A stretch of DNA of 60,735 nt from positions 1 to 60,735 of the IMG/VR virus record IMGVR_UViG_3300020395_000007; one strand, given 5' to 3'. A program made the translations under genes and the position numbers. Below the pieces are notes generated by a model. That model did no database searches and was not told the origin of the DNA. It worked only from the letters and a program-made list of their open reading frames with translations. Every line of letters begins with the position of its first letter. Position 1 is the stretch's first letter. This DNA comes from a virus. Below, in pieces: positions 16,001 through 34,358 of this stretch.

Positions 16001-19000
16001 TCACAAAGGTTAATGAGGGTGCATTTAAGCTCTCTCAGGTCGGTGTAGGAGGTACTTATGCCAACTATTATTATAATACAAATCAATATCTAGATTTATC
16101 ATCTGTTGGTGTAGGAACTCATTTATTTAATTATCCAGAGATTAAAGTTAAGTTAACTACATCTGGATTTACTACTACAGCATATGAAGCACAAGTTCAA
16201 CCAATAGTTAGAGGAGAACTTACGTCAGTTCAATTATCTAATAATGGAGTTGGATATGGATCATCTGATATTATTAATCTAGAAAAACAACCACTAGTAA
16301 CATTAGTTGGAGGCACAAATGCTCAAATAGAAGCAGTTGTTAATAATGGTAGTATTGTTGATATTTTAATTAAAAATCCAGGTAAAGATTATACTTCGGT
16401 TGATTTAGATATAATAGGAAATGGAAGTGGTGCTATTTTAACACCAATTATTACTAATGGATCTATAACTTCTATTAATATTGTTGAGGGTGGTGTAAAT
16501 TATGTTCAGGGTAGTACTTATATTAATATAATTCCTGCAGGTAGTGGTGCTAATTTTAGGTCTAATTTACAGTCTTGGAATGTTAATTTAGTTAGTAGAA
16601 ATATTAATAAATTTACAGTCGATGATGGATATTTGGTAGATGGGATTAATTCAGAAGAAACACTTCAATATTCTCATTTATATGCTCCAAGAAAATTAAG
16701 AGAAAGGGTATTCTCTGTTGATCAGGTTGGTAGGACAATGTATGGCAGCTATGATCTGTCTAAAGACCTTGGTGGTAATGAAAATACTTCTTCACAACAT
16801 TCTCCTATTATTGGATGGGCATATGACGGCAATCCAATTTATGGTCCTTATGGTTATATAACAAAAGCTGGTGGAATAATTGCTCAGATGAAATCTGGGT
16901 ATAATAGTAGAGATGCAGTATCATTAGCAAATAGACCTCCATTTGCACCTGAAGGATTTTTTGTAGAAGATTATAAGTACCAAAAGGTCTCGGATGAAAC
17001 AGTTCTTGATGAAAATAATGGTAGATTTTGCGTAACTCCTGAATTTCCAGAAGGTGTTTATGCATATTTTGCAACAGTTGAGGAAGATATTGCAACTTCT
17101 GGTCAATTTGTTGGATATAAGCAACCTTCATTCCCTTATTTAATTGGTGATAAATTTAAGTCAAAACCCAATGAATTTAATTTTGATAAGAAGTCTAATC
17201 AAGATGAATATGATATTTCTGAATCTAATTGGGTAAGAAACACGACTCCAAATAATTTACATGAAGAAGGTATAGATTATGGATATATTTCTTTACCAAA
17301 TGAACTAAAACAAACTGTAGATATTACAGGTGTTGCTCCAGGTAGAATAGAATCTATTGGAATTGAAACAGGTGGTAAAGATTATAGTGTAGGTGATACA
17401 ATTCGTTTTGATAATTTAGGTACAAAAGGATCAGGAGCTTCTGCCAGAGTTACTATGGTAGAAGGTAAGAGATTTGATACTATTAGTGTTGCTACTTCAA
17501 CAATTACAGATTGTGAAATATATCCATCAAATTCTTATGAAATACTTACTAATGAACCTCATAACTTCTTAAATGGTAACTTAGTAAGTGTTACTGGTTT
17601 ATCTACTACATCCTCTGGTATAGAAGGAGTATATCCTATAAAAGTTGAAACAGGATCATTTACTTTAGTTGGATTGGGAACAACAGTTTCTGGTGCTTCT
17701 GATATAGAGATAACTGGAATTATTACTTACTTTAATGCTAGAGGTAATTTTGATTGGGTGAGTATTAATGATACTTTTGAGGTTGGTGATAATGCAGGAT
17801 TTTTCGATCAACCAGAAAGGATTCAAGTACTTAATAAGGATGAAAGATCTTCTAGAATACGGGTTTTAAGAAATGTTAATGTAGATCCTGGTCTTTCTAC
17901 AAATTCTTCACTTCAGACTAATACTCCGATTGTAGAAGAATCAAAGAAATTCACTATACCTGCAGGGTTAAGTACTACGTTTACAGGTAAAAAGAATACT
18001 CAATATTATTTTGATCCTGCAGAAAGTGTTGGGTTTGGTCTTACTATTGGATTAACTCATACTGCACATATTAATAATCCAGGAGCAGGAGCATCTATAT
18101 TAAATATCGCAACAAGATCTATTTACTTACCAGCACATAAATTAAGTACTGGTGATGAAGTAACATATTCTCCTTCACTTCCTATGTTTGAGGGTGTAGA
18201 GGGAATTGGTATTGCTACGGTTGGTGTTATAACAGCAGGTTATTATAATGTATCAACTCCTAGTCCTCTAGAAGATGGTAAAAAATTATTTGTTGCAAAG
18301 ATAAATGAGAACTTAATTGGTTTATCTACTGTTAGGGTAGGTATTGGTAGCACAGGCACTTTCCAAGGTCTTGCAGACGCATATAAGGACTCTACAACAC
18401 TACTATTCACTGCACCTTCTAATCCATTTGAGGCTCATAGTTTTAAGACAAATTACGAACCAATTACTGCAACTGTAACTAGACATTTAACAACTGCTGC
18501 ATTACAAGAAGATCATGGTTTATCAAATGGTGATGAAGTAATTGTTAATGTAAATCCAGGTGTTGCATCTACTTATTTTGTTAAGTATAATGATTTTAAT
18601 AGAAGACTTATTGTTAATGAAGTAGAATTTGCAGATACTGATGTTAATATTGAAAAAGATTCAATTACAATAAAAAATCATGGATTTGTAACCGAACAAA
18701 AGGTTGTTTATACTGCTATAAGTCCTGCTGGTGGATTAGAGAACAATAGAATATATTATCTCTATGTTCAAGATGCTGATACAATTAAATTATGTCCTAC
18801 TCTTTGGGAAGCACAACAATTTAAACCTAATTTTGTTAATATTACAAGTGCAACTGCTGGAAATATTGGACCAATAAATCCACCACTTAAAGGATATAAA
18901 GATTCTACACTTGTATTTGATGTTGGAGATTCTAGTTTAGCATTTATAAGAGATTCTCAACCATACTCAGCATTTGAGCTTGATTTCTTTACTGATAATA

Positions 19001-22000
19001 ATTTTACTGAATCTTGGAATAATAGAGTTACTGATATTGTTAGAAATGGAATAGCTGGTATAAACTCAACTGCTACTGTTACTATAACAATAGATAAGTA
19101 TTCTCCAGATTCACTTTATTATAATTTAACTCCATTATATGAAACAGATCTTCCACCAGTTAAAGAAGAAATTCAACCTGATAAGGAAGTATTTGATAGC
19201 AATAAAATAGAAGTTAAGGATAGTTTCTTTAGTGGAAGAAGAATAGTTGCTATTGCGGATACTAATAAATTTGATTTTACGGTTGGTTCATTACCTGAAG
19301 TAACATCATATAAGAATGAAAATCCAGAATTATCGTATAAAACATCATCAAGAAGTGCTGTTGGTGCTATTGCTGAAATTAATATTGTAAATGGTGGTGC
19401 TAATTACTATTCATTACCTGGAATTACTTCAGTTGCATCAATTACTGGTAGTGGTGCAATAGTTAATCCAATTAGTACTTCTATTGGTCAAATTAAGACT
19501 ACTAAAGTTAATGATATTGGATTTGATTTCCCATCAGATAATACTTTAAGACCAACTACAAACTTACCTCAAACATTATTCTTAAATTCACTTTCTAGAA
19601 TAGAATCTGTTGGTATTACTTCTGTAGGTAATGGATATATTAAAGCACCTACTTTATTAGTTTTTGATGGATCAACTAAGGAAAGAGTTGATGATATTGA
19701 ATTAAAATATAAATTAGGGGATGATCAGGTATCAGTAATTAAAAATAAGTCTAATGTTAGTCCTGTTCCTCCAATAATTTTACCGATTAATAATACTAAT
19801 GGAATTGGTATTGCTACTATAGGATTTACTACAGCAACTAAAGAAGTTGTAATTGGATTTAATACTGGATTTAGTGATGTATTTCCTTTTGATATTGGAA
19901 CCCAGTTCTTAATTGAGAATGTTAGTGTTGGTATTGGATCTACTGGATTTGGATTTAACTCATCAGCATATGACTATAAGATGTTTACTGTCAGTAAGAC
20001 TACTCCAAATCTTGGTGGTATTGGATCTATATTCTTCAATTTAGAAGGAATGTTACCTTCTGGACAGGAACCAGGACAATATGATCCAATTAATTCTGTT
20101 GGTAGAGTAATTCCAGAAAGAGATTTTCCAATATTTGATGTTACACTAAAGAATAATGATTTCTTTAGTAATGAAGTTTTAACATCACCTAGTGCAACTG
20201 GTACTGTAGAATCCTGGAATCCCATTACTGGAGTATTAAAAGTTGTTTCTAATGATAAATTTGTTACTAATGAGTTAGTTACTGGTGCATCTTCTGCTGC
20301 ATCTGGAATTACGTCTTCTATAAGAACATTTGATTCTAGTATAAATTTGGATGTTTCCTCAAAAATATCCAGTGGATGGGAATCTAATTCTGGGTTCTTA
20401 GATGATAATCAGCAGAGATTGCAAGATAGTCTATATTATCAGAATTTCTCATATTCATTAAAATCTAGAATTGCTTATGATACCTGGCAAGATGTAGTAT
20501 CAACATTAAACCATACATTAGGATTTAAGAAATATTCTGATTATGAAGTAATTTCCGATTCTTCATTACCTGAAGGTGGATCTGGGTATTATATTAAAGG
20601 TGGTGGATCAGGTGTTGAAAATCATGTACCTGCATCTATGGTTATTGGTGTAACTACTGCTCTTACATATTCTGATGTGATATCAGAGTGTATTGGAGTT
20701 GGTAACTTAAATTGTGTTCATGATTTTGATTTAGTAAGTGAAAATGCATTACAAATTGGTAATAGCACTTTATCTAATGAAATAAGATTTACAAGTAAAA
20801 CACTTACTGACTATTTTGAGTCTATTGGTAATAGGGTTCTTTCTATTGATGATATAAGTCCTACATTTAATAGTAATCCTAGACCTACTCCATTCAGTGT
20901 AGTAAGTAACTTTACATTATCAGATGTAAGAGCACAGAAGTATATTACTTACGTTAGAGATAAGAGATATCTTGATGAAAGACAAATTATGATTGTTGAT
21001 ATTGTTAATGACAACTACAATGCTTATATCAGTCAATATGCAAGAGTAGAAACTGAATATGATCTTGGAACGTTTGATTTCACAGTACAGGGAACTGATG
21101 GACAGTTATTATTCTATCCAACAAGAAGTACTGTAAATGATTTTGATATTACATGCTTATCTTACAATATTGATGATAATTTAGCAGGAATTGGTACAAC
21201 TCAGTTTGGAAAAACTGCAATTCGTACTGGTAGTTTTGATATTTCTGGTGGAACTACTACTATTGCTTCATGGTATCAAGATAATCAAAATGCTGGAAAA
21301 CTTCTTGTTGAGATTACGGGATCTAGTAATGAATACGAGATGGATGAAATTAACTGGATTACCACTCCATCTCAACAGAATGTTAATGGTACTTCTACTA
21401 TTGATATAATCGACTATCCTCAAATAACCACTGATGTTGGGGAAGTTGCTAGTGCTGGTATGGGAACATACTGGGCGTATAAAGATGGTACTCAATTAAA
21501 GATCGACTTTATTCCACATCCTGCAACTAATAGATTATTTACAGTAGAACCTTCTGAAGTTAATGATACTGATGACACAATCACTATGATAAATCATAGA
21601 TTGTCAACAGGATCTGGATTAAAGTATACGGAAGGTGCATTACCGATTGGTGGTCTTACTAGTGGTACAACTTATTATGTTATTAATGTAAGTGAAGATC
21701 TTATCCAATTAGCAACAACTGAAGAGAATGCAAAAGAAAATATACCGATAGATCTTACAACTTCAGGAACAGGACAGCAGTTCTTTAGAGTTCTTACAGT
21801 ACTTAATGTAATTATTAAAGAACTTTATTCTGGTCAAAATCAACAACATATTGGTATAGGTAATACAGTCAATATGAAACATGCTCGATTAGAGAGTAAT
21901 ACAATTGGTATAGCTGCTAACGCAACACCAGTATCTCATCTAATTTGTAGATATGAAACCCAAATAGATGCTAATACTGATGGTTATGATGGTGCATATT

Positions 22001-25000
22001 TGATGATAAATGTAGAAACTGGTACTACTGGTAATACAAATAACGGAACTGCTGAAAGATATTTCAGTGAGCGTATGATTATTGATGATTATAATGAAGG
22101 ATTACAAACTGGTGAAGTATATGAAGCAGAATGGGGAGTTTTAACTTATAACGAATCTCCTAATCATTCTGGATTAGGTACATTTGGTTATGAACTTGTT
22201 AAGAATCCAGGTGGAACTTCTTATGTAGAAGTGAGATTTACTCCTCCTGCAATGAAAGCATCTTCAGTAACTTATATGATGAATGCCCTTAAGGTTCAGG
22301 ATGATTTACAGGATCAAATTACTTTTGATAATGCACTAATTCAATCTGAATCTAGTACTTATGAAGGTACGCATAGTGATATTAAGAGAGCATTTAATCT
22401 AACACATAATAATTATCCTATTTTCGAGAGAGAATTTGATGGAAGTGATACTGAAATTATTAGTATTTTAGATAATACAATTAAGTTACCTAATCATTAC
22501 TTTGTTACTGGCGAAAAACTTACATATGAACCTATTGGATTAGGAAGTAGTACTAATATTGGTATTGCTACTGAAACTATCCCTGGTATTGGTCAGACTG
22601 ATAGACTTCCTCGTACAGTTTATGCTGTTAAGGTTGATGAGGAGAAAATTAAATTAGCATCAACAGCAGAGAATGCACTTTTAGGTACACCAGAAATTCT
22701 TGATATTACCAGTGTTGGTATTGGTACAACAATGAAATTTGTTACTGAAAGGCAGAATACAAAGGTTCTTGTTGCTCTTGATAATATTATTCAATCTCCA
22801 GTTGTATCTACAGCACTAACAACTCATTTAGAACAACAATTATTTACTACAGATAACTTAGTGCAGGTTGGTAGTATTACTTCTATATTTGGTGGAGATT
22901 TAATTAAGATTGGTGATGAGATAATGAAGGTAGAGGGTGTAGGTATTGGAACTGCTAATGGAATAAGAGTACGTAGACCTTGGTTGGGTACTAAAGTTGG
23001 TTATGCAGCAACTAGTGCATTAGTAACTAAAGTACAGGGTAATTATAATATCGTAGATAATGTTCTTAACTTTGTAGAAGCACCTTATGGTAATGTGCCA
23101 TTTAGTTCTACAACAAATGAACCTGATGAGAGAGATTGGGTAGGTATTGAGACAGGATCAAGTTTCCAAGGAAGATCCTTTATGCGTTCAGGTATTCCTG
23201 ATACATCATCAGAAGCATATAGTAATAATTTTATTTTTGATGATATTTCTTCTAATTTTGATGCAATTGATAGTACATTTACATTAAAAACAGAAGGAAA
23301 TAACTTTACTGGAGTTGAACAGGACAATGCTATTGTTCTTATTAATGATATTTTCCAGGAACCAGGATTGGTTGGTGATTACTTCTTAGAAGAAAGTGCA
23401 GGTATTACGTCTGTTACTTTTGTTGGTACTGCAAGAACTATTACTAATGATGTTGGTATTTCTTCCTTCCCAAGAGGTGGTGTAATCGTCTCAGTTGGAT
23501 CTAAAGCAGGGTTAGGTTATCAACCATTAGTTGTTGCTGGTGGAACCGCTAATGTTTCTATTGCAGGAACAATTGGATCAGTAAGTATTGGTAATAGTGG
23601 ATCTGGTTATAGAGTTGGAATTCAGACAGTTGTTAATGTTGGAGTTGTAACTACCCCTAATATTCCAAATAAGGTTGTTAGTATTGGTACAGCGACAATT
23701 TCTGATGGACATGTTACTGGAATAAATGTCACCAATGAGCAAGTTTTCCATGCTCCAAGTGAAATTCAGAATGTTACTTACACAAGAACTAATGGTGTAA
23801 CTACAGTAACTACAATTAATCCTCATGGATTATCTGAATCTGAAATGGTTGTTCTTTCTGGAATAGCATTTACTTGTGATTATGCACCAGCAGTTAGCAT
23901 ATATGGTGCAGAATATGATAATACAACTGGTATAATGACTGTAATGACTGCCACTTCTCATGGAATAGGTAGTGACAAACAGGTTATATTTACTGGATTA
24001 GGAATGACTTGTGGTATGGATAATGGTGCTACAACTCATATCTATCCAAGAGGAAAGGATATTGCTTATAACAGACCAATTACAATATTGGATGATGGAG
24101 CACATTACACGGTAAGTAATGCAACATATGATCCATATACTGGTAAAATGTCAGTTACTACCAGTACTAATCACGGATTTACTAATAATGACTTTATTAA
24201 ATTTAAGGAAAATTCAATATCCTTTAGATGCAATAAAGATGATTTTGAGACCGTTCATTCTTATCCAAGAAAAGGTGATTATTCAATTGATAGGTGGTTA
24301 AAGATTTCTAATGTATCTGCTAATGGTTTTGATGTTTATGTTTTAGATTTCACTGAAAGACCTTCATCAAATACAACTATTCATGTATTCCATTCTGCAC
24401 TTGAGGGTGGATTAATCCATAACAATGGTAAGATAACTGTTGATGTAGGTGCAGCAGGTGCTAGTGATCAATATGCTCATACCTGGGCAGGTGGTAATGC
24501 GGTTGATGCAATTAAGACTGGTGGTGATCATACTCATAGATTTGTTAGTGCTACATCTGGTGCAGTTATTAAGGGTGGTGATTATAACCATACTTTCTCA
24601 AGTGCTTCTGATGGTGGAGTTAGTGTAACTGGAATAGGAACTACAACTCCTACTGATGCAACTTATGATGCAGAAAAAGGAGAATTAGTACTAACCATTC
24701 CTAATCATGGACTTACTGTTGATGATACTATTACATTTAATCCTGATGCTATTACATTTACATGTGAAATGGATGGGAATACTACAAAACATTCTTATCC
24801 AAGAACAACAGACCCAGTAGCAGGAATAGCAACTGCAATTGTTGGAACAAGTCAGCATACAGTTACTGTTAATGTCGGTACATCACCTCTTGTTAAGTAT
24901 GATGTTTCAGATGCAACTTATACAGGATCTACTGGAGAATTAGTATTAACTATTGAAAATCATTCATTACGTGGATCTTCTACATTTACTATTAGTAATG

Positions 25001-28000
25001 CAGAATATGATCCAATTTCTGGAATTATGACTATGACATCTGCATTTCATGGTTTATCTACTGGAGATAGGATTAAAATTGCAGATAATGCAATAACATT
25101 CCGTTGTGATCAAGATGGATATAATTCAGATCATTCATATCCAAGAGCAGCAGTTCATAAAGGTAGTGGAGTTGTAGAACCAGATCCTGCACACGATAAG
25201 TGGTTACCAGTTTCTAAGGTAGATGAAAATAAATTTGCTGTTAGAGTTGTAGATAATGTTCCTTCTTCTAATGTAACAACTCATGTATATCAAACTTCTA
25301 CTCCTAATGGAATAACAAAAGCAGGTGAATCTGTTAGAATTGCTAAAGATAGTTTGACATTTACTTGTTCAATGGATGATTATGTAAGTCCACATAGTTA
25401 TCCAAGAGGAACAGATCCAATATATGAAACATCAGTTTCTGTTGCTTCAACAACTAATAATACAGTTACATTGAATGTTGGAGTTAGTACTTCTGTAAAT
25501 TATACAGTAACTAATGCAGATTACACTGCATCTACTGGTATTATGACAATGACTCTTAGTGAGCCTCATTCATTAACTACTGGTACAAATATTGGTATTA
25601 CTACCGAATCTTTAACATTTACATGTACTAAGGATGGGAATGCAACACAGCATAAGTATCCAAGAAAACCAGATCCTACTTATAATGGGGTAGATGTTAT
25701 TGATATTGGTAATTTAGTTCAGAAGGATGTAACTAATGCAACTTACATACCATCAAATGGTAATTTGGTTTTAACAATTGGTTCTAATCATGGATTAAAG
25801 ATTGGTGATGCTGTTAAGATTAAGACTGATTCCTTAGCATTTACTTGTGCTATGGATAGTGATTCATCTACTCACACATATCCAAGAGTAACAGATCCTA
25901 TACATGATAAGTTTGTTACTATTTCTAGTGCTAATCAATCTGCAGGTACAATTACATTACCTGTTGGAACAACTCCAGAAGTAAGTCATGATGTAACAGA
26001 TGCAACTTATAATCCAGATTCTGGTGAAATGGAGTTAACAATTGGTCTCCATACTCTAACTGAAGGTACAAGTATTAGACTTGTCGCTAATTCATTAAAC
26101 TTCTCATGTAATAATGCTGGAGTTCAGAACAGAACATATCCTCGTGCATCTGGTGCTAACACATCTGGTGGTGCTGATTATGCATATAATACTTCACTAG
26201 AAATTCTAGCAGTTACTACGACTACTATTCTGATTAATGTTAATGGTGGTCAAGGTGCTATTAGTCATAATTATCCTCATACCTTCATTAGTGCTACTCC
26301 TGGTGCAGTTAAGAGTGGTGGTAACTATAACCACACTTATGTTGGTGGAACAGTAGCAAATGCTGTTAGTGTTGGATCTACAGTACTTTCAGTTAATATT
26401 GGAGTCTCTACTGTACCAACATTCTATAAGTCTGGTGGAGTTGTTCAGCAAGCAATTGTTGCACCTAGAGCAAAGAATCTTTCTCCTAGTGGCGTTGACC
26501 CTGCTGTTGATGGTAGTGTAGTTGTTAAGGTACTTGATAGTACATCATTTGAGGTTAATAGTGGATTATCAACACGTCATCACTTATATGCAAGAGGTGG
26601 TAAAGTTGATCCATTCTTAGATGTTGTAATTGATGAACCACTTTCATACTCTAATGTTCCATTAGTTTATAGTGGATCTGCTCCTGCAGGTGTTGGAACA
26701 TATGCTACTGCAGATATCATTGTTGGGCAAGGTTCTAGTGTTATTAGTTTCTCTATTAATAATAGTGGATATAGTTATGGTGTTGGTGAAACATTAACTG
26801 TTTCTTCTGGTGGTACTTTAGGTATTCCAACGACATCTGACTTTGATGAATTCCAACTCACTGTTCAGGATATATTCACTGACGAATTTAACGGTTGGTC
26901 AATGGGTATGTTACAGACATTAGATAATGTAGATCATTTATTTGATTCTAAGAGAGTTACGTTCCCAATAAAGGTTGGTGGTAATATTATTGCTATTAAA
27001 TCTTCAGAAGGTTCTAATATCAATGTTGAAGATACTCTATTAGTATTTGTTAATGATATATTACAAGTTCCTGGTAAAGGATTTAGATTTGATGGCGGTA
27101 GTGTAATTACCTTCGGTGAAGCACCTAAGAAAGGTGACACTTCTAAGATTTTATTCTATAAAGGAAGTGGTGATGTTGATGTGGTCTTTAGAAATATCAT
27201 TGATACAGTTAAACGTGGTGATTCCTTACAGATTGAAAATGATCCTGAAAAAGATCAACCCTATTATATGACTGAAGATGAAAGAATTGCTACTCAAATA
27301 ATATCAATTGATACTGCCCAAACAGATCCATATCCAGGTCCAGGTAATACTGATGATGCTAATTTATTAAGACCAGTCATATGGTGTCGTCAAACTGAAG
27401 ATATGATTATTGATGAAACACAAGTTGGTAAGGCAAGAGAATTGTATGAACCTGTTATTTCTCCAACTGCTTATGTAACTAGACCAATTTCTGCTGGATC
27501 TACTGAGGTTTATGTTGATAATTTGAGACCATTATTTGATGGTAAGAATGAGAACAATGTTGATCCATACTTATTATTCCAGAAGAAAGTCACTTTTGTT
27601 GATATGGAGACTCAAATTGGAGCATCTGCAACAGCAACACTTTCTGGTGATGGAATAATTTCAGTAACTGTTACTGATGGTGGTGTTGGTTATTCAACTA
27701 CTCCAACAGTTTCTATACAGAATCCTATTGGAATTGGTTCTACTGCTCTTGCTACTGCGACAATTAATAATACTGGATCTGTTTCTGGAGTTACTGTTTC
27801 TTATGCTGGTACTGGATACAACTCTATACCACAAGTTCTTATAGCACCTCCAACACTATCTGAAGAAACAAAACCAATTAATTGGTTTGCAGGTGATTCA
27901 GGAACAATTGTTGGATTTGGTACTACAACTAAGGCTAATAGTGATTATCTAATGTTTGATTTCCATATACCATTAGAATCTGATTTACGTGATGGATCTT

Positions 28001-28581
28001 TAGTTGGATCTGCTATTACATTAAGTCAGATACAACAAGGTGATTACTTTGTTGTTACCAATTCTACAGTTGGTAATGCATCTACAAGTATAAAATCTTA
28101 TGATCCTAGTGATGTTGTTGTTGCAATAGGAACTGAATTTGTCAATAATGTTTACTGCGTTAATACCGTAGAGAATAAGACAGTTAATGTTCCTGGTGTT
28201 GGTGTAACAATGGTAAGAAGGATAAATTCTAGGGTTACTGGATTATCTACAATTACTTTTGACTCTACAGGAATTACTATGGATAATGAGATATATACTA
28301 TGGATAATTCTGTAGTTGGGTCTGGTAATTCTTATGCTGGTGATATTACAACTCCTTTAGGAATTGGAAACTATAGTTGGGGTAAGTTACAAACCAAATC
28401 CAAATTACAAAATAACTATAAATTCTATGGTGCAAATGGTATTGGTGTAGGAGAATATTCTACAACAGGTGAGAATGCTGATGATGAAACTATAATCATA
28501 GAACATTCTGCTACAGGTATTCACACTTCTTCTATTGTAAGAAGATTTGAGCCTTTGAGATCAATCAATTACATAGTCTAA
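13024..28581 (+). CDS. 7: Giant baseplate/fibre protein in the gp7 position (5185 residues)
   Basis: An uninterrupted 15.6-kb frame. Its N-terminus (RIQFNNIVENQLPSYVKEDY) and its place between 6 and a gp10-like gene fit the cyanophage gp7-type wedge protein, but T4 gp7 is only 1032 residues. It is largely modular beta-structure. A YHYH-like domain lies at about 1255-1375 (GWAYDGNPIYGPYGY, then NGRFCVTPEFPEGVYAYF). GEKxxY...GGL...YYV modules recur at about nt 14850, 15590, 15925, 18130, 18680, 21590 and 22495. GxGY...P modules recur at 15390-16560, 17340, 19370, 26740 and 27610-27850. About nine FTC...HSYPR repeats lie at residues 3613-4383. It probably forms a large wedge with extended fibre. 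Assignment to gp7 is by position and N-terminus only. Confidence 0.7.
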   Translation: MISTTDKRIQFNNIVENQLPSYVKEDYPLINDFLKQYYIAQEFDGAPVDLIQNIDKYIKLDNTTNIVDSIVLGTDVEITDTDIVVDLIKTPEGTNGFPDTYGLIKIDDEIITYESKTITTFVNCHRGFCGITSFTEEANAENLVFRSTERQAHSKGTEIENLSVLFLKKFLTKTKQQILPGIGERELTPNLNQNVFIKQSSDFYSSKGTDKSFKILFKALYDQDVSVIKPRDNLFTPSNANYKVADNFIVESFSGDPEELGTATLFQDPYEDTITKAYAPITYVEKVSTGTAGVGKTFYKLAVDSGYSRSGMTDGAIYGKFSVHSKTRVIGNVGIGTTVLDVDSTVGFPNSGELSIQYKNLSIGIVSYTAKSLTQFYGCTNLNGVILDGTDVGINTYAYGYSSLDQNKVIKIKINSVINSLNFDSDAYGYESGDKIKINTLGIGATGFKSNNWFYNGCPVYVVNSFELVDASDQTWEITLNKDHFFKVGDAAVLNGRDSSPRKCEIVSISSSKSFVISGQGALSTSDVYNIRRTISKAVPSGSNAIGAGISVFSTDIQNVYLDNDKLLVASPSIPSYGTQPLDAYDHSVTFSGTFSGINWEISSQDHAFYTGDSIYYSPNKITQNFINSAGQPTSRIVDGPGLVDEGIYFIERVDLNTIKLAKSKSDLLNNRYLSIPDNAPITVTDNKIQKSVYNNKILETQKILREIDSPNNEGQETKTKAGFTGILINGVEILNYKSRDYIYHGEVKSVDLLSTGSDYDVINPPPLKIDDNVGTGATGHVSVSGSIKEVRIVDPGFDYHEKPIITVSGGNGFGAVLTPNMKLIPHQVKFDATQKGERIILGQANSLINFTQKHKFLTGERIVYISDSETAVGGLSTASNYYVDVINDYKIRLHNKPWEAIVGLNTITFTSYGTGNQIIKSYANKSVLESINIVNSGTGYENKKRVTGTSGISTSLNTINISNHGYSSGERITYTSQETPVGGLTSGNDYYVTKVNEGAFKLSQVGVGGTYANYYYNTNQYLDLSSVGVGTHLFNYPEIKVKLTTSGFTTTAYEAQVQPIVRGELTSVQLSNNGVGYGSSDIINLEKQPLVTLVGGTNAQIEAVVNNGSIVDILIKNPGKDYTSVDLDIIGNGSGAILTPIITNGSITSINIVEGGVNYVQGSTYINIIPAGSGANFRSNLQSWNVNLVSRNINKFTVDDGYLVDGINSEETLQYSHLYAPRKLRERVFSVDQVGRTMYGSYDLSKDLGGNENTSSQHSPIIGWAYDGNPIYGPYGYITKAGGIIAQMKSGYNSRDAVSLANRPPFAPEGFFVEDYKYQKVSDETVLDENNGRFCVTPEFPEGVYAYFATVEEDIATSGQFVGYKQPSFPYLIGDKFKSKPNEFNFDKKSNQDEYDISESNWVRNTTPNNLHEEGIDYGYISLPNELKQTVDITGVAPGRIESIGIETGGKDYSVGDTIRFDNLGTKGSGASARVTMVEGKRFDTISVATSTITDCEIYPSNSYEILTNEPHNFLNGNLVSVTGLSTTSSGIEGVYPIKVETGSFTLVGLGTTVSGASDIEITGIITYFNARGNFDWVSINDTFEVGDNAGFFDQPERIQVLNKDERSSRIRVLRNVNVDPGLSTNSSLQTNTPIVEESKKFTIPAGLSTTFTGKKNTQYYFDPAESVGFGLTIGLTHTAHINNPGAGASILNIATRSIYLPAHKLSTGDEVTYSPSLPMFEGVEGIGIATVGVITAGYYNVSTPSPLEDGKKLFVAKINENLIGLSTVRVGIGSTGTFQGLADAYKDSTTLLFTAPSNPFEAHSFKTNYEPITATVTRHLTTAALQEDHGLSNGDEVIVNVNPGVASTYFVKYNDFNRRLIVNEVEFADTDVNIEKDSITIKNHGFVTEQKVVYTAISPAGGLENNRIYYLYVQDADTIKLCPTLWEAQQFKPNFVNITSATAGNIGPINPPLKGYKDSTLVFDVGDSSLAFIRDSQPYSAFELDFFTDNNFTESWNNRVTDIVRNGIAGINSTATVTITIDKYSPDSLYYNLTPLYETDLPPVKEEIQPDKEVFDSNKIEVKDSFFSGRRIVAIADTNKFDFTVGSLPEVTSYKNENPELSYKTSSRSAVGAIAEINIVNGGANYYSLPGITSVASITGSGAIVNPISTSIGQIKTTKVNDIGFDFPSDNTLRPTTNLPQTLFLNSLSRIESVGITSVGNGYIKAPTLLVFDGSTKERVDDIELKYKLGDDQVSVIKNKSNVSPVPPIILPINNTNGIGIATIGFTTATKEVVIGFNTGFSDVFPFDIGTQFLIENVSVGIGSTGFGFNSSAYDYKMFTVSKTTPNLGGIGSIFFNLEGMLPSGQEPGQYDPINSVGRVIPERDFPIFDVTLKNNDFFSNEVLTSPSATGTVESWNPITGVLKVVSNDKFVTNELVTGASSAASGITSSIRTFDSSINLDVSSKISSGWESNSGFLDDNQQRLQDSLYYQNFSYSLKSRIAYDTWQDVVSTLNHTLGFKKYSDYEVISDSSLPEGGSGYYIKGGGSGVENHVPASMVIGVTTALTYSDVISECIGVGNLNCVHDFDLVSENALQIGNSTLSNEIRFTSKTLTDYFESIGNRVLSIDDISPTFNSNPRPTPFSVVSNFTLSDVRAQKYITYVRDKRYLDERQIMIVDIVNDNYNAYISQYARVETEYDLGTFDFTVQGTDGQLLFYPTRSTVNDFDITCLSYNIDDNLAGIGTTQFGKTAIRTGSFDISGGTTTIASWYQDNQNAGKLLVEITGSSNEYEMDEINWITTPSQQNVNGTSTIDIIDYPQITTDVGEVASAGMGTYWAYKDGTQLKIDFIPHPATNRLFTVEPSEVNDTDDTITMINHRLSTGSGLKYTEGALPIGGLTSGTTYYVINVSEDLIQLATTEENAKENIPIDLTTSGTGQQFFRVLTVLNVIIKELYSGQNQQHIGIGNTVNMKHARLESNTIGIAANATPVSHLICRYETQIDANTDGYDGAYLMINVETGTTGNTNNGTAERYFSERMIIDDYNEGLQTGEVYEAEWGVLTYNESPNHSGLGTFGYELVKNPGGTSYVEVRFTPPAMKASSVTYMMNALKVQDDLQDQITFDNALIQSESSTYEGTHSDIKRAFNLTHNNYPIFEREFDGSDTEIISILDNTIKLPNHYFVTGEKLTYEPIGLGSSTNIGIATETIPGIGQTDRLPRTVYAVKVDEEKIKLASTAENALLGTPEILDITSVGIGTTMKFVTERQNTKVLVALDNIIQSPVVSTALTTHLEQQLFTTDNLVQVGSITSIFGGDLIKIGDEIMKVEGVGIGTANGIRVRRPWLGTKVGYAATSALVTKVQGNYNIVDNVLNFVEAPYGNVPFSSTTNEPDERDWVGIETGSSFQGRSFMRSGIPDTSSEAYSNNFIFDDISSNFDAIDSTFTLKTEGNNFTGVEQDNAIVLINDIFQEPGLVGDYFLEESAGITSVTFVGTARTITNDVGISSFPRGGVIVSVGSKAGLGYQPLVVAGGTANVSIAGTIGSVSIGNSGSGYRVGIQTVVNVGVVTTPNIPNKVVSIGTATISDGHVTGINVTNEQVFHAPSEIQNVTYTRTNGVTTVTTINPHGLSESEMVVLSGIAFTCDYAPAVSIYGAEYDNTTGIMTVMTATSHGIGSDKQVIFTGLGMTCGMDNGATTHIYPRGKDIAYNRPITILDDGAHYTVSNATYDPYTGKMSVTTSTNHGFTNNDFIKFKENSISFRCNKDDFETVHSYPRKGDYSIDRWLKISNVSANGFDVYVLDFTERPSSNTTIHVFHSALEGGLIHNNGKITVDVGAAGASDQYAHTWAGGNAVDAIKTGGDHTHRFVSATSGAVIKGGDYNHTFSSASDGGVSVTGIGTTTPTDATYDAEKGELVLTIPNHGLTVDDTITFNPDAITFTCEMDGNTTKHSYPRTTDPVAGIATAIVGTSQHTVTVNVGTSPLVKYDVSDATYTGSTGELVLTIENHSLRGSSTFTISNAEYDPISGIMTMTSAFHGLSTGDRIKIADNAITFRCDQDGYNSDHSYPRAAVHKGSGVVEPDPAHDKWLPVSKVDENKFAVRVVDNVPSSNVTTHVYQTSTPNGITKAGESVRIAKDSLTFTCSMDDYVSPHSYPRGTDPIYETSVSVASTTNNTVTLNVGVSTSVNYTVTNADYTASTGIMTMTLSEPHSLTTGTNIGITTESLTFTCTKDGNATQHKYPRKPDPTYNGVDVIDIGNLVQKDVTNATYIPSNGNLVLTIGSNHGLKIGDAVKIKTDSLAFTCAMDSDSSTHTYPRVTDPIHDKFVTISSANQSAGTITLPVGTTPEVSHDVTDATYNPDSGEMELTIGLHTLTEGTSIRLVANSLNFSCNNAGVQNRTYPRASGANTSGGADYAYNTSLEILAVTTTTILINVNGGQGAISHNYPHTFISATPGAVKSGGNYNHTYVGGTVANAVSVGSTVLSVNIGVSTVPTFYKSGGVVQQAIVAPRAKNLSPSGVDPAVDGSVVVKVLDSTSFEVNSGLSTRHHLYARGGKVDPFLDVVIDEPLSYSNVPLVYSGSAPAGVGTYATADIIVGQGSSVISFSINNSGYSYGVGETLTVSSGGTLGIPTTSDFDEFQLTVQDIFTDEFNGWSMGMLQTLDNVDHLFDSKRVTFPIKVGGNIIAIKSSEGSNINVEDTLLVFVNDILQVPGKGFRFDGGSVITFGEAPKKGDTSKILFYKGSGDVDVVFRNIIDTVKRGDSLQIENDPEKDQPYYMTEDERIATQIISIDTAQTDPYPGPGNTDDANLLRPVIWCRQTEDMIIDETQVGKARELYEPVISPTAYVTRPISAGSTEVYVDNLRPLFDGKNENNVDPYLLFQKKVTFVDMETQIGASATATLSGDGIISVTVTDGGVGYSTTPTVSIQNPIGIGSTALATATINNTGSVSGVTVSYAGTGYNSIPQVLIAPPTLSEETKPINWFAGDSGTIVGFGTTTKANSDYLMFDFHIPLESDLRDGSLVGSAITLSQIQQGDYFVVTNSTVGNASTSIKSYDPSDVVVAIGTEFVNNVYCVNTVENKTVNVPGVGVTMVRRINSRVTGLSTITFDSTGITMDNEIYTMDNSVVGSGNSYAGDITTPLGIGNYSWGKLQTKSKLQNNYKFYGANGIGVGEYSTTGENADDETIIIEHSATGIHTSSIVRRFEPLRSINYIV
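23860..26170 (+). repeat. About nine tandem degenerate protein repeats in the giant gene
   Basis: Each unit carries an ...YxxxTGxMxLTI..HGL..GD..I.. segment followed by FTCxMDxxxxxHSYPRxxDP. Units are centred near nt 23871, 24010, 24222, 24760, 25103, 25362, 25620, 25842 and 26103. Copies are diverged at DNA level, so this is an old expansion. Cysteine and the YPR triplet are the most constant features. Confidence 0.7.
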
Positions 28582-28606: not shown

Positions 28607-29959
28607 ATGGCCAAACTAGGTATATCAACAGGAACGGTTGCCAATGATGGTACTGGTGATACCCTGAATGAAGCTGGTACTAAATCGAATGCCAATTTTG
28701 ATGAGGTTTATACCTATCTTGGTGATGGAACTAACTTGGGTTCTACAGGAACTAGTCAGTTAGTCGCTGGTAAATTGCAAGTTGGTGCTGGAGAGAGTAC
28801 GGGAGATGCTAATGTTGCTACATTTAATGGATCAGTTAACTTAAACGGTGGAGATATAAGAGTTGGTGGTGGTGCGTCTATAACAGGAATTACAACGATT
28901 AAAGGAGATACTGTTGTTCATGGAGATGTTTATATTCATGCTGGTATTGTAACTGCTGGTACTGGTGTTGTTACTTATTTTGGTGATGGTGGAAATCTTA
29001 CTGGTCTAGGTGGTGCTGGTAGATGGACAGGTGATGCAACTGGTATTAGTACAACAAAAATAGTTGGTATTAATACTATTAGTTCTTCTGCTGGTATTGC
29101 ATTAACAGTTAATGGTCCTACTTATTTGGGTGGGGTAACAACCTGTTCTAGCCACATCCATGCAACACAATTTAATGCAAACGGTGCTTTTTTACTGACT
29201 GATAGACTAGCATTACAACACGATCCTGTTAATCCATATACATCTTGGGGTGATTTCTTAGCAAGTGGTGAAGGACTTCAGATTATTGGTTCTCCAGATG
29301 GTAGTGGAAAATCACTTCCAATTCATATTAGAGGAAGAGAAAGTGGAGGAAGTGGTCTTACGTCAAATTATGTTACAAGTTTCTATACATCTGGTGGTGC
29401 TAAAGGTGGTGCAAATTTTACTGGTATAGTTACTGCACAACAATTTAGTGGTGATATTGCTGGTGTAGGTGCTACATTTACTACTGTTTCTGCTGGTGGT
29501 TCTGTTACTGCTAATTCATTTTATGGTGATGGATCAAATCTAGAAGGTGTTGCAAGTTCTGGTATTGGATTATCAATAAGAGAAACAATAACTAAGACAG
29601 TTAGTGGTATTGGTATTGGTAATACATCAAATACCTCATTTACTGACGGTAGAAAATCTTACGTATTACAAAAAGTTGGTGTTTCTAGTGCTTCCAGAGT
29701 AGTTTTATATACTGATCAAAATTCTATGGCTGCAGATGCTGGTAGAAGTGCAACAACAGACCCATTACCAGGTTCTGGTGTAATAGCAGAAATTAATACA
29801 AATACAACAGGTGTTAGTACATTTTTAATGAGTCCTGGTTTGATTGGGTGGAATAATGATGCTACTCCATCTGATAATATTTGGGTATCTGTTACGAATA
29901 ATGAAACATCAACGGCAAACATTACAGTATCTCTGACAATTGTTCAGTTGGAGGCTTAA
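28607..29959 (+). CDS. 10: gp10-like baseplate wedge/fibre protein
   Basis: A 450-residue protein (T4 gp10 is 602). The N-terminal 40 residues (ISTGTVANDGTGDTLNEAGT, then NANFDEVYTYLGDG) match the T4 gp10 N-terminal attachment domain (IGNVVDDGTGDYLRKGG, NENFDELYYELGDG). The rest is a fibre-like body with FxGDGxNLxG repeats (YFGDGGNLTGL, FYGDGSNLEGV), as in trimeric tail fibres, and a beta-rich C-terminus. In T4 the gp10 trimer binds gp7, consistent with the gene next door. I assign the N-domain with confidence, while full functional equivalence to gp10 is inferred. Confidence 0.75.
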   Translation: MAKLGISTGTVANDGTGDTLNEAGTKSNANFDEVYTYLGDGTNLGSTGTSQLVAGKLQVGAGESTGDANVATFNGSVNLNGGDIRVGGGASITGITTIKGDTVVHGDVYIHAGIVTAGTGVVTYFGDGGNLTGLGGAGRWTGDATGISTTKIVGINTISSSAGIALTVNGPTYLGGVTTCSSHIHATQFNANGAFLLTDRLALQHDPVNPYTSWGDFLASGEGLQIIGSPDGSGKSLPIHIRGRESGGSGLTSNYVTSFYTSGGAKGGANFTGIVTAQQFSGDIAGVGATFTTVSAGGSVTANSFYGDGSNLEGVASSGIGLSIRETITKTVSGIGIGNTSNTSFTDGRKSYVLQKVGVSSASRVVLYTDQNSMAADAGRSATTDPLPGSGVIAEINTNTTGVSTFLMSPGLIGWNNDATPSDNIWVSVTNNETSTANITVSLTIVQLEA

Positions 29960-29962
29960 TAA

Positions 29963-32785
29963 ATGGATGATATAAAGAGAGAATATATTGTTACTGTTAA
30001 AAAACACAGTGACTTAGAAGAACTTTATGATGGGATGGAAACTCCTGGAAGTGACGGATTTTGTCCAGAAAGAGAAGTTGAATTAATTGCAAGAAGAAAT
30101 ATTAGTAGAAATACACATTATAAGTTAACTGAATCAGAAGCAAATAATATAAAAAATAATCCAAATGTATTAGCTATAGAATTAGCACCTCATGAAAGGG
30201 GTATTATAGCAGAATCCTTATGGGGACCGCAGACGGGTGATTTCCAAAAAGATACGACTTTTACTAGTGGGCAGCAACAATGGGGATTAAAAAGAGTTAT
30301 TGATGGTGTCCAAACAAATAATTGGGGTACTAATGGGCAATTAGTTATAAATGATACGATACAAACAGGAGCCTCTGGAAAAAATGTTGATCTTGTGATT
30401 GTAGATAGTCATATAAATCATGAGCATCCAGAATTTTGGATAAATCCTACTGTTAATACTGGATCTAGAGTAAATCAAATTGATTGGTTCCAATACTCAG
30501 CTAATATAGGTGATTCTAACGCTGCTGGAAAAACTTACACATATAGTACTGGTGGATATAATGCTGGTAATAGCAATCATGGTACTCATGTTGCTGGTAC
30601 TGCTGGAGGTAATACTCAAGGATGGGCAAGAGACGCAAATATTTACAATATGGAATTTTCTACCAATAATGTTAATTCCTTATCTGGTACAAGTTATTCT
30701 GATTGGGACTTGTATCTTTTTGATTATTTAAGAGAATTTCATAAATGGAAGGGTATTAATAGTAAGACAGGAAGAAAAAATCCAACCGTAACAAATCATA
30801 GTTGGGGTTATAGTCAAGGTTCTCCTGATCTTAACAGTATTACAAGTGTTACTTATAGAGGAACTACTACATCAGTATCTGGATCAGACCCTGAAAGAAA
30901 AACTATATTAGAAGCAAATGGATGTCCTGTACCATATAACACATATTTACGTAGAGTTCCTGTAAGAGTATGGGCTCTTGAGGCTGATATACAGGATGCT
31001 ATTGAAGATGGTATTATTGTTATTAGTTCTGCTGGTAATTCTTATTGGATGATGGATTTATCTACTGGATCTGATTGGAATAATTATTATTCTATTGGTG
31101 CTAGTAATTATTATCATTCTCAGGGATCAAGTCCAGGAGCAGCTCCTGGTGTAATTTGTGTTGGGTCTGTCGGAACATTAGTAGAAGAATATAAATCAGC
31201 TTTTACTAATATTGGTAAAAGAGTTGATGTATTTGCACCTGGATCAGATATAATTTCTGCTGTTTGGGACACTAGTGCAGTTAATGAATGGGGATCACCT
31301 TGTGTTGTTGATCCTAGAGATTCTAATTTTTTCCTTACTGATATTAGTGGTACTAGCATGGCATCACCTCAAGTAGCAGGTTATATTGCATGTCTAGCAG
31401 AACAGGAACCAAATATTACACCTGCAAGTGCATTGCAGCATTTAATAGATTACTCAAAGAAGGATCAAATTTCTAGTGATGGACCTGCAGTAGGTTATGG
31501 TGAAGCAGAATATACAACACCAGGAACATATCAATGGACATGTCCTGCTGGTATAACAAATGTATCGGTTGTTTGTGTAGGTGCTGGTGGGGGAGATAGA
31601 ACTGCTGGTGGAGGTGGATTAGGATGGAAAAATAATATTCCAGTAGTACCTGGTACATCTTATACTGTAGAAGTTGGAGCAGGAGATCCAAATCTTTCTG
31701 GTGGACATTCATATTTTATAGATATGAACACTGTTAGTGGTGAAGGTGGGGCAAATACTGCCAATGGTGGTACTGGTGGATCATTTACTGGAGATGGTGG
31801 TGGAGATGGTGGTGATGGTGCAATAGTACCACATGGTGATAATGGTGGAGGTGGTGGTGCTGGTGGATATACTGGTAAAGGTGGATCTGGTGGATTTTAT
31901 GGTTCAAGTCAGGGAACAGATGGACAAGGTGGAGGCGGTGGCGGTGGATCTGGATGGTCGAATAGTGGGCAACAAGGTTCTGGTGGTGGAGGAGTAGGAA
32001 TATATGGACAAGGTGCTGATGGTATTGGTGCTAGTTCAGGAAATGGTGGTGGCGGTGGTTCTGGTGGTACTACCCCAAGTGTTAGTAACAGTGCTCCAAA
32101 TGGTAGAGCTGGTGGATTATATGGTGGTGGAGCAGGAACGTATACTGCTGGTGCTTTCCAATCTTGTAGTGGTGGTGGCGGTGCAGTTCGTATATTATGG
32201 TGGACTGATCCAGCTACAACAAGATCTTTTCCTTCGACCAATGTAGCAAAAGTTGCGTTGTGGTCAGAAAATTATAAAGATATTGTTGATAGTCCTAATA
32301 GGTATCTTTATTATCAAAAGAAGAGACCTGATTCTGGTTTAGTATATCCACATGAAAATCATGGAAACCATTCACAGTCTTCTGGTATTTCATATCCAAG
32401 ACCAAATAAAGTAACTTATAAAACAGAGACTTTCCATGAAGAATTTCAATGGAATTTTAGTGTAACTGGTTCAGCTGGAAATCCATATACCTTTTCTGAA
32501 GGTTATGATAGAAATGGTTCTGTAGGTGGTGGCAATGTAACTATTACATTCAAGCAAGGTGATACTTTAGCACTTACAATTAGTGCTATTGGACATAATT
32601 TATGGATTAGTAATAGAGAAGGTACTGGTATGCCATCTCCATCTGAAACTCCAGGCGGAATTACTAATAACGGTACTGATAATGGTGCTCTTGTTTGGGA
32701 CACTGAAGGAATTGCTCCAGGTACTTATTGGTATAATTGCCAAACTCATTCTGGTATGCGTGGAAACATCGTGATAACTTCCTAA
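29963..32785 (+). CDS. Virion-cluster subtilase with glycine-rich adhesin and cupredoxin domains
   Basis: A 940-residue multidomain protein. Residues ~1-90 resemble an I9 propeptide (EYIVTVKKHSDLEEL...HYKLTESEA). Residues ~140-480 are a subtilase (S8) with a complete triad: D148 (IVDSH), H206 (NHGTHVAGT) and S465 (GTSMASPQVAGY), plus oxyanion N359 (SSAGN). Residues ~530-745 are a glycine-rich domain of the phage adhesin type (GLGWKNNIPVVPGTSYTVEV, then polyglycine). Residues ~825-940 form a cupredoxin-like domain with type-1 copper ligands H878 (IGHNLWI), C926, H929 and M932 (CQTHSGM), in amicyanin spacing. It lies between the gp10-like gene and gene 8, so it is likely a baseplate or fibre-tip enzyme that cleaves itself, the baseplate or a host surface protein. 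Confidence 0.8.
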   Translation: MDDIKREYIVTVKKHSDLEELYDGMETPGSDGFCPEREVELIARRNISRNTHYKLTESEANNIKNNPNVLAIELAPHERGIIAESLWGPQTGDFQKDTTFTSGQQQWGLKRVIDGVQTNNWGTNGQLVINDTIQTGASGKNVDLVIVDSHINHEHPEFWINPTVNTGSRVNQIDWFQYSANIGDSNAAGKTYTYSTGGYNAGNSNHGTHVAGTAGGNTQGWARDANIYNMEFSTNNVNSLSGTSYSDWDLYLFDYLREFHKWKGINSKTGRKNPTVTNHSWGYSQGSPDLNSITSVTYRGTTTSVSGSDPERKTILEANGCPVPYNTYLRRVPVRVWALEADIQDAIEDGIIVISSAGNSYWMMDLSTGSDWNNYYSIGASNYYHSQGSSPGAAPGVICVGSVGTLVEEYKSAFTNIGKRVDVFAPGSDIISAVWDTSAVNEWGSPCVVDPRDSNFFLTDISGTSMASPQVAGYIACLAEQEPNITPASALQHLIDYSKKDQISSDGPAVGYGEAEYTTPGTYQWTCPAGITNVSVVCVGAGGGDRTAGGGGLGWKNNIPVVPGTSYTVEVGAGDPNLSGGHSYFIDMNTVSGEGGANTANGGTGGSFTGDGGGDGGDGAIVPHGDNGGGGGAGGYTGKGGSGGFYGSSQGTDGQGGGGGGGSGWSNSGQQGSGGGGVGIYGQGADGIGASSGNGGGGGSGGTTPSVSNSAPNGRAGGLYGGGAGTYTAGAFQSCSGGGGAVRILWWTDPATTRSFPSTNVAKVALWSENYKDIVDSPNRYLYYQKKRPDSGLVYPHENHGNHSQSSGISYPRPNKVTYKTETFHEEFQWNFSVTGSAGNPYTFSEGYDRNGSVGGGNVTITFKQGDTLALTISAIGHNLWISNREGTGMPSPSETPGGITNNGTDNGALVWDTEGIAPGTYWYNCQTHSGMRGNIVITS

Positions 32786-32810: not shown

Positions 32811-34358
32811 ATGTCTGCAATTATAACCGATCAGATTAGAATATTAAACGCAAAGAATTTTGTTGCTGGTGTAGGTAACACTGACAATTCTTACTATTCT
32901 TTTATTGGTCTTCCTAATCCAGAGGATTATCAAACTAATTGGGATACTGATCCTCCTACTCCCAAAGATTCTTTTGATGAGGAAATGGGATATTGGGATA
33001 GCATGATTGCTCTCAAAAAGGTTAACAATGCAGATATTAGACAGGTTGTAACAAAGAGAGTATGGAAGTCTGGTACAAAGTATGATATGTACCGTCATGA
33101 TTATAGTAGATCTAATACATCATCAATATCTAAGGCAACTAATTTATATAATGCATCATATTATGTTATAAATGAAGATTACCGAGTTTATATGTGTCTA
33201 CAAAATGGCACAAGTCCAGATTATCCAAATGGACAAATTTCATTAGATCAGCCAACATTTACTGATTTAGAGCCAAGAGCAGCAGGAACAAGTAATGATG
33301 GTTATGTTTGGAAATACCTTTATACTATTAAACCAAATGAAATTATAAAGTTTGAGACTTCTGATTTTATTCCTGTTCCCCAGGAATGGGAGACTTCACC
33401 AGATAATGCTCCTGTTAGAGAAAATGCAATAGAAGGTTCTATTAAAATAGTTACTATTACTAATGCTGGTATTAATGTTGGTGCAATATCAACATCATAT
33501 ACAAGAGTTCCTATTAATGGAGATGGAAATGGTGCAGAAGCAACAGTTGTTGTTAACAATGATCTAAAAATAGATTCCGTTACAATTTCTAGTCAAGGTT
33601 CTGGATACACTTACGGAACTTTAGATTTAGCAGCAGGAGGTGTACCTGTTGCAAGTACTGAACCTGAATTTAATGTTATCATACCACCATCTGGTGGTCA
33701 TGGTGCTGACATATACAGAGAACTTGGTGCTTATAATGTTTTATTGTACTCTAGATTAGAAAATGATACTGAAAACCCTGATTTTATAACAGGTAACCAA
33801 TTTTCCAGAATTGGAGTTGTAGAAAATCCTCTTGCACCAAATAGTATTATTCCACTAACACTAGATAAAGCAAGTGCATTATCTGCTCTTAGATTAACTG
33901 GTATTGGTTATAGTTCTGCTACTTTTAGTGCAGATAGTCAATTTGTACAAACAATTGGTACAGGTCTTACTGCTGTTGGTAGAGTTGTTAGTTATGATCA
34001 AACAACAGGTGTTCTAAAATATTGGCAAGATAGAGTTGGATTTAATACTGTAGGTGCTGCTTTAACAAATGCACCTTATGGTTATGAACAACTAGAATTT
34101 ACTAGTAGTCCTTCTTCAGGTGGAACTATAGTAATTACTCCAACAACAGGATCTAACTTACAAATAGATTCATCCTTTAGCGGTTTTAGCACCTCTATAA
34201 ATAATAGGACATATAACCTTGGTCAAGACTTTACTAACGGTATTTCTTCCCCTGAAGTTAAACGATATTCAGGTAATATAATTTACGTTGATAACAGACC
34301 ATCTGTTAATAGGTCAGTAAACCAAAAAGAAGATATTAAAGTCATCTTGCAATTCTAA
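32811..34358 (+). CDS. 8: gp8 baseplate wedge subunit
   Basis: A 515-residue protein, against 334 in T4. The first ~200 residues are clearly gp8-like: SAIITDQIRILNAKNF, YDMYRHDYS, YYVINEDYRVYMCLQNG and GYVWKYLYTIKPNE. An inserted GxGY-type beta-module occupies about residues 215-290 (VTITNAGINVGAI, SSQGSGYTYG). The C-terminus returns to a gp8-type ending (GNIIYVDNRPSVNRSVNQKE). gp8 forms the outer wedge arm with gp7 and gp10. It has its own late-promoter motif. Confidence 0.9.
   Translation: MSAIITDQIRILNAKNFVAGVGNTDNSYYSFIGLPNPEDYQTNWDTDPPTPKDSFDEEMGYWDSMIALKKVNNADIRQVVTKRVWKSGTKYDMYRHDYSRSNTSSISKATNLYNASYYVINEDYRVYMCLQNGTSPDYPNGQISLDQPTFTDLEPRAAGTSNDGYVWKYLYTIKPNEIIKFETSDFIPVPQEWETSPDNAPVRENAIEGSIKIVTITNAGINVGAISTSYTRVPINGDGNGAEATVVVNNDLKIDSVTISSQGSGYTYGTLDLAAGGVPVASTEPEFNVIIPPSGGHGADIYRELGAYNVLLYSRLENDTENPDFITGNQFSRIGVVENPLAPNSIIPLTLDKASALSALRLTGIGYSSATFSADSQFVQTIGTGLTAVGRVVSYDQTTGVLKYWQDRVGFNTVGAALTNAPYGYEQLEFTSSPSSGGTIVITPTTGSNLQIDSSFSGFSTSINNRTYNLGQDFTNGISSPEVKRYSGNIIYVDNRPSVNRSVNQKEDIKVILQF

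What the first reader, a model, noticed from the sequence alone, without database searches (positions are those of the whole stretch)
29963..32785. Baseplate-cluster protein fusing a subtilisin, a glycine-rich adhesin and a copper-type cupredoxin
A complete D148/H206/S465 subtilase with an I9-like propeptide is joined to a polyglycine adhesin domain of the kind used in phage receptor binding, and then to a cupredoxin domain. The ligands H878, C926, H929 and M932 follow the C-x2-H-x2-M spacing of amicyanin. A virion-borne protease with a possible redox or copper sensor could time self-cleavage, clear surface proteins, or sense contact with the redox-active host envelope. I know of no described phage system with this combination.
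Basis: partly seen in the sequence, partly recalled or inferred. Interest (0 to 1): 0.82.

Follow-up and report, generated by a model that had tools for sequence, protein, structure and literature searches.

The report
Cyanophage tail protease with copper-type domain
A virus of ocean cyanobacteria appears to carry on its tail a protein-cutting enzyme fused to a domain with an intact copper-binding site; the same pairing recurs in many cyanophages, some isolated, but has apparently not been discussed, and what the copper-type site does for infection is unknown.

Summary
ORF 29963-32785 (940 aa) has a complete S8 subtilase triad with oxyanion Asn, an inhibitor-like prodomain, a Gly-rich stretch and a C-terminal domain with H878/C926/H929/M932. 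That domain is a cupredoxin by profile, ligand register and predicted fold. All four ligands are kept in 74 of 77 non-redundant viral copies.

The combination is not unique. S-H9-1, S-CAM4 and ACG-2014e already encode subtilase-cupredoxin fusions, annotated as S8 peptidase or hypothetical, and PHROG 9158 contains both domains. New here: (i) the gene is half of a two-gene cassette, gp10-anchored fibre plus protease, placed between gp7 and gp8, where Bellamy and S-SM2 have nothing; (ii) the fibre's last ~90 residues adjoin the protease in 122 of 132 upstream ORFs; (iii) the cupredoxin sits at at least four positions of the protease, on the partner fibre, or on collagen-like tail fibres; (iv) homologues of protease and cupredoxin-fibre are labelled virion proteins in S-SCSM1.

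Best reading: a tail-tip protease with interchangeable surface modules, one a probable type-1 copper domain. A redox switch for the protease is weakly supported: most close protease relatives lack the cupredoxin, and most fibre-type copies sit on proteins without a protease. Copper binding is untested.

The parts
28607..29959 (+). gp10-like fibre, partner gene of the cassette: N-terminus 1-50 like T4 gp10, conserved C-terminal module (~361-450)
   Evidence: PF07880 30.6 bits vs 25; PDB gp10 2fl8 E=1.5e-5 over residues 3-50; C-terminal ~90 aa similar in 122 of 132 ORFs immediately upstream of the protease
29950..29962 (+). GGAGG Shine-Dalgarno-like site at the end of the fibre gene, 8 nt before the protease ATG; 3 nt between stop and start, suggests translational coupling
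   Evidence: sequence
29963..32785 (+). 940-aa protein: subtilase + Gly-rich + cupredoxin
29963..30217 (+). prodomain (aa 1-85), inhibitor I9-like beta-alpha-beta-beta-alpha-beta fold
   Evidence: AF2 secondary structure, pLDDT mostly 64-86; Foldseek to pro-subtilisins; no Pfam I9 match
30377..31465 (+). S8 subtilase catalytic domain (aa 139-501); D148, H206, N359, S465
   Evidence: PF00082 9.6e-27; invariance
31481..32290 (+). Gly-rich insert (aa 507-776)
   Evidence: PHROG 4474 E=3.2e-56; PF21722 sub-threshold; absent from ~555-aa relatives
32291..32404 (+). conserved C-terminal tail of the core protease (NRYLYYQKKRPDSG...YPRP, aa 777-814), shared with protease-only relatives
   Evidence: (P812, R813 invariant)
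32438..32782 (+). cupredoxin domain (aa 826-940); ligands H878, C926, H929, M932
32811..34358 (+). gp8 baseplate wedge: right border of the cassette
   Evidence: PF09215 60.6 bits; PHROG 438 5e-159; in Bellamy and S-SM2 gp8 directly follows gp7
13024..28581 (+). gp7-like giant baseplate wedge protein (5185 aa): left border of the cassette
   Evidence: PHROG 2885 on its first 1000 aa; order as in Bellamy and S-SM2

Best explanation
This is the enzymatic half of a two-gene, host-recognition cassette in a T4-like (Kyanoviridae-type) cyanophage. The first gene makes a fibre that docks to the baseplate through a gp10-type N-terminus and ends in a conserved ~90-residue module. The second, closely coupled gene makes a subtilase zymogen that I infer sits on that module at the fibre tip, in the way gp38-type adhesins follow their fibre gene. 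After assembly the prodomain is cleaved (inferred) and the protease trims host surface proteins during adsorption, or frees stuck virions after lysis (inferred). Beyond the core protease, the protein has accessory slots that take interchangeable surface modules: Gly-rich, cupredoxin, or laminin-G lectin in S-SCSM1. The cupredoxin most likely binds copper in a type-1 site and serves as a stable tip module that contacts the host or its envelope. Shown: sequence, homology, fold prediction, ligand and triad conservation, conserved gene pair, empty site. Inferred: tip location, proteolysis of the host, copper occupancy, role of copper.
For: Triad plus oxyanion Asn kept in about 150 homologues. Fibre module adjacent upstream in 122 of 132 ORFs, even where the pair lies away from gp8, e.g. 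S-CAM4 and S-RSM4. Empty site in Bellamy and S-SM2: gp25-gp6-gp7-gp8. gp10-type N-terminus. S-SCSM1 records the subtilase homologue gp144 and the proximal fibre gp141 (cupredoxin and the same C-terminal module) as virion proteins, in a phage whose virion proteome was measured by MS (PMC9602691). HCHM in 74 of 77 nr90 copies at median pairwise identity ~0.40; neither search pattern contained H929 or M932. Cupredoxin at C-terminus, before the catalytic Asp strand (L090), in the middle (L017), or after the oxyanion segment (L055); on the fibre in L145, L146, L181, L199. Laminin G instead of cupredoxin in gp144.
Against: Physical association of fibre module and protease is inferred from gene order only. 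Host-protein cleavage is not shown; in S-CREM1, whose paper reports 14 virion proteins by MS, I could not tell from the text whether the protease was among them. That '(virion protein)' in the S-SCSM1 record means MS-detected is my reading. Copper binding was not tested; the model carries no metal and I could not measure ligand distances. The cupredoxin is dispensable for the family.
Confidence: 0.55

Rival explanations
1. Copper- or redox-gated protease: the cupredoxin senses copper or envelope redox state and times propeptide removal or proteolysis.
For: Ligands near-invariant; cupredoxin is fused to, or inserted inside, the protease at several different positions; 54 of 80 best cupredoxin loci have the protease in the same ORF.
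Against: 74 of 80 nearest protease ORFs lack a fused cupredoxin; most fibre-type cupredoxins have no protease of this family nearby (61 of 80) and occur in collagen-like tail fibres. The sample behind 54 of 80 was drawn mostly with protease-fused queries.
Confidence: 0.08
2. The cupredoxin is only a beta-sandwich spacer or binding scaffold on tail proteins; copper is absent or incidental.
For: Modular, tandem (up to about five copies in L098), found on many tail fibre types; a few copies have lost ligands (HSHL in L070/L072; degenerate copies in L098).
Against: A pure scaffold would not be expected to keep H, C, H and M in 74 of 77 diverged copies; in the one complete exception Cys and Met are lost together, as expected of a shared site.
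Confidence: 0.22
3. The protease is an assembly factor that matures the phage's own fibre or baseplate, and does not act on the host.
For: Tight pairing with one conserved fibre module; zymogen form with prodomain.
Against: The whole cassette is absent from related phages with the same baseplate order, so it is not needed for general assembly; S-SCSM1 homologue is recorded as retained in the virion.
Confidence: 0.15

Closest known systems
Subtilase-cupredoxin proteins of S-H9-1 (QPB08157.1), S-CAM4 (AOV59889.1), ACG-2014e (AIX20639.1); PHROG 9158
   Same: Same core: prodomain, S8 domain, YPR tail, C-terminal cupredoxin with HCHM; same fibre partner immediately upstream.
   Different: No Gly-rich insert; about 33-38% identical; cassette lies in another part of the tail gene set, not between gp7 and gp8.
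S-CREM1 peptidase SCREM1_165 and S-H38 subtilisin-like protease
   Same: 55% and 50% identical protease; S-CREM1 has the gp10-like partner upstream and gp8 further downstream.
   Different: S-CREM1 protein is protease and tail only (~560 aa), no Gly-rich or cupredoxin part.
S-SCSM1 PQC12_gp144 and PQC12_gp141
   Same: Subtilase homologue and a cupredoxin-bearing proximal fibre with the conserved C-terminal module, both recorded as virion proteins.
   Different: Domains on separate proteins; protease carries laminin-G lectin domains instead.
Type-1 copper proteins: rusticyanin, plastocyanin, amicyanin, pseudoazurin
   Same: Fold and four ligands in register; C-x2-H-x2-M loop as in amicyanin (spacing from general knowledge).
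   Different: Those are free electron carriers; this is a domain of a tail protein, without known redox partner. PDB E-values only 1e-5 to 1e-3.
gp38-type adhesins of T-even phages (from memory)
   Same: Gly-rich part; gene directly downstream of a fibre gene.
   Different: No sequence match to any solved structure; gp38 is not a protease.

Membership tests
Subtilase family S8 (PF00082) | Pfam gathering score | tested here: met
   94.5 vs 21.8 bits
Subtilase family S8 (PF00082) | D/H/S triad and oxyanion Asn | tested here: met
   D148, H206, N359, S465; near-invariant in homologues
Subtilase family S8 (PF00082) | proteolytic activity | not testable with these tools
   needs an assay
Inhibitor I9 propeptide | Pfam profile match | tested here: not met
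   no match at E<=0.1
Inhibitor I9 propeptide | beta-alpha-beta-beta-alpha-beta fold before an S8 domain | tested here: met
   AF2, Foldseek pro-subtilisins; moderate confidence
Cupredoxin / PF00127 | Pfam gathering score, window domain | tested here: not met
   16.4 vs 21.2 bits
Cupredoxin / PF00127 | Pfam gathering score, close relatives | tested here: met
   L004 23.9, P-SSM2 fibre 23.3
Cupredoxin / PF00127 | type-1 ligands His, Cys, His, Met in register | tested here: met
Cupredoxin / PF00127 | cupredoxin fold | tested here: met
   pLDDT 94.2, Foldseek rusticyanin/AcoP/plastocyanin, prob 1.00, TM ~0.5
Cupredoxin / PF00127 | binds copper | not testable with these tools
   needs UV-vis, EPR, ICP-MS
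Gly_rich_2 (PF21722) | Pfam gathering score | tested here: not met
   18.6 vs 24.3 bits for the window; best family member E=3e-7
gp38-type polyglycine adhesin | sequence match to a solved polyglycine adhesin | tested here: not met
   no PDB match at E<=10
gp38-type polyglycine adhesin | gene directly after its fibre gene | tested here: met
   3-nt gap, conserved pair

The most novel reading that the evidence does not exclude
Marine T4-like phages carry functional type-1 copper sites on their adsorption apparatus, spread by domain shuffling between a tail protease, its fibre partner and collagen-like fibres, and use the bound copper for docking to, or electron exchange with, the host envelope.
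Probability: 0.2. Interest if true: 0.85.

Novelty: new variant of a known kind. Interest (0 to 1): 0.55.

Why it matters
Cyanophage genomes hold many unexplained tail proteins. This gives one a testable role: a protease cassette that can be present or absent between gp7 and gp8, which may help explain host range. It also shows that copper-type cupredoxins with intact ligands are common on marine phage tail proteins. I found no paper discussing this in the library searched, and copper binding on a phage tail fibre would be new and easy to test.

Tried and rejected
Chance resemblance: rejected (profile, fold and ligand register agree). Chimeric or mis-assembled ORF: rejected; 96% identical 940-aa copies in L002 and L003, and 66-72% identical copies with the same domains in other contigs. 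A second cupredoxin elsewhere in the window: the C-x2-H-x2-M scan of the main plus-strand ORFs gave only this one. Literature searches for cupredoxin or plastocyanin-like with phage tail or cyanophage gave nothing on virion proteins; subtilisin plus cyanophage papers spoke of the sheath 'subtilisin-like' Pfam name or a sheath gene. Sullivan 2010 names an S8 peptidase in P-HM1/2 without discussing it. The full-length AF2 model is poor in the Gly-rich part (pLDDT ~22), so domain arrangement is not interpreted. Whether the S-CREM1 protease is among its 14 virion proteins could not be read from the text. dN/dS against L002: catalytic ~0.17, cupredoxin ~0.31, Gly-rich ~0.46 from few differences; purifying, faster in the accessory parts.

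Full report
Observation. The ORF is real and complete: 940 aa, ATG at 29963, stop at 32785, with a GGAGG 8 nt upstream inside the end of the preceding gene. Near-identical copies exist in other contigs (L002, L003, 96%) and more distant ones at 66-72%, so it is not an assembly artefact.

Phage. The contig is an IMG/VR virus record. Its terminase is 91% identical to single-cell marine virus AG-345-O18 and 84% to Synechococcus phage Bellamy; portal, sheath, tail tube, capsid and baseplate genes are T4-like. It is most likely a cyanophage of the Kyanoviridae type; its host is inferred, not known.

Protease. PF00082 matches strongly. Asp148, His206, Asn359 and Ser465 are kept in essentially all of about 150 homologous stretches, and 10 diverse members align through all motifs. 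The N-terminal 85 residues fold as beta-alpha-beta-beta-alpha-beta, and the model matches pro-subtilisin structures; Pfam I9 itself was not hit. There is every reason to expect an active, zymogen-type subtilase; activity was not tested.

Cupredoxin. A profile of 11 family members finds rusticyanin (3.5e-5), amicyanin and plastocyanin, with His, Cys, His and Met aligned to the copper ligands in the rusticyanin alignment shown; a 72-member profile finds plastocyanin, pseudoazurin and amicyanin. AF2 gives pLDDT 94.2 and the top Foldseek matches are cupredoxins (TM ~0.5, so a distant member). In 77 non-redundant viral copies, 74 have H, C, H and M; two were incomplete alignments and one (L070/L072) has lost C and M together (HSHL). 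The search patterns fixed the first His or the Cys in each hit, but not the second His or the Met, so conservation of the latter two is unbiased. The later fibre-type sample had patterns that included the ligands, so its conservation is partly by construction.

Architecture. The core protein is prodomain, S8 domain and a short tail ending in YPR; 74 of the 80 nearest subtilase ORFs are only this, about 555 aa. The Gly-rich part is inserted between the S8 domain and the tail; the cupredoxin follows the tail. Elsewhere the cupredoxin is inserted before the catalytic Asp strand (L090, L092), between SWGY and the oxyanion segment (L017), or after that segment (L055), or repeated up to about five times (L098). 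It also sits on the upstream fibre (L145, L146, L181, L199, L038), or in the gene immediately downstream (L074, L077, L079, L099). When searched with fibre-type copies, 61 of 80 loci had no related subtilase within the flanks, and such proteins are mostly collagen-like tail fibres and baseplate connectors. S-SCSM1 gp144 carries laminin-G domains instead. So the cupredoxin is a shuffled tail module that recurs on the protease, not a fixed part of it.

Gene pair and empty site. In 122 of 132 cases the gene ending within 60 nt upstream of the protease ORF shares the last ~90 residues of the window's gp10-like fibre (loci not dereplicated). The fibre's first 50 residues match T4 gp10. In Bellamy and S-SM2 the order is gp25, gp6, gp7, gp8, then a large VrlC-like or structural protein, with nothing between gp7 and gp8. 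The fibre and protease therefore look like a two-gene cassette that can be present or absent at this site.

Virion evidence. RefSeq NC_070962.1 (S-SCSM1) marks gp144 (subtilase), gp141 (cupredoxin fibre that also bears the C-terminal module) and neighbours as '(virion protein)'. The accompanying paper reports 45 proteins found by mass spectrometry in CsCl-purified virions (PMC9602691). I read the label as MS detection; the supplement was not available. This is for homologues, not for the window protein.

Mechanism. I propose a baseplate-anchored fibre with a protease at its tip, carrying interchangeable surface modules. Steps shown: homology, ligand and triad conservation, fold prediction, gene pair, empty site. 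Steps inferred: tip placement, host-protein cleavage, copper occupancy and its use. A copper- or redox-gated protease is possible but the distribution argues against it as the general function.

Known or new. Subtilase-cupredoxin fusions are already in public genomes (S-H9-1, S-CAM4, ACG-2014e/i/j) and in PHROG 9158, whose C-terminal ~115 positions match cupredoxins; UniProt calls such proteins 'Peptidase S8/S53'. I found no paper that names the cupredoxin part (open-licence library only). The Gly-rich plus cupredoxin version is a variant of this kind.

Noticed in passing
window 52358-52945 and 60003-60584: Two genes match the same tail tube family (PHROG 45), the second downstream of the major capsid gene.
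   Followed up: no
window 47733-48377 and 58593-59834: Two ORFs in the structural cluster (214 and 413 aa) with no PHROG match at 1e-5; the first lies between the small and large terminase genes.
   Followed up: no
window 7876-8409: 2OG-Fe(II) oxygenase gene (PHROG 81), of a type common in cyanophages.
   Followed up: no
L103-L132: The same cupredoxin family occurs in proteins (about 140 to over 2000 aa) of mostly marine Bacteroidetes genomes, possibly a source or exchange partner of the phage domain.
   Followed up: partly
L102: A 'Gammaproteobacteria' MAG contig encodes a 60% identical cupredoxin; probably a phage contig binned with the MAG.
   Followed up: no
L070, L072: ORF starting at 2234, aa 583-689: Cupredoxin copy that has lost both Cys and Met (HSHL) while keeping both His: a natural ligand-less comparison.
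   Followed up: no
BFVD matches: Giant-virus 'beta-sandwich' proteins (Pithovirus and Marseillevirus metagenomic genomes) and a 'Blue type 1 copper protein' of Fadolivirus share the fold.
   Followed up: no
L098: ORF starting at 464: One protease carries about five tandem cupredoxin units, some partial or degenerate.
   Followed up: partly
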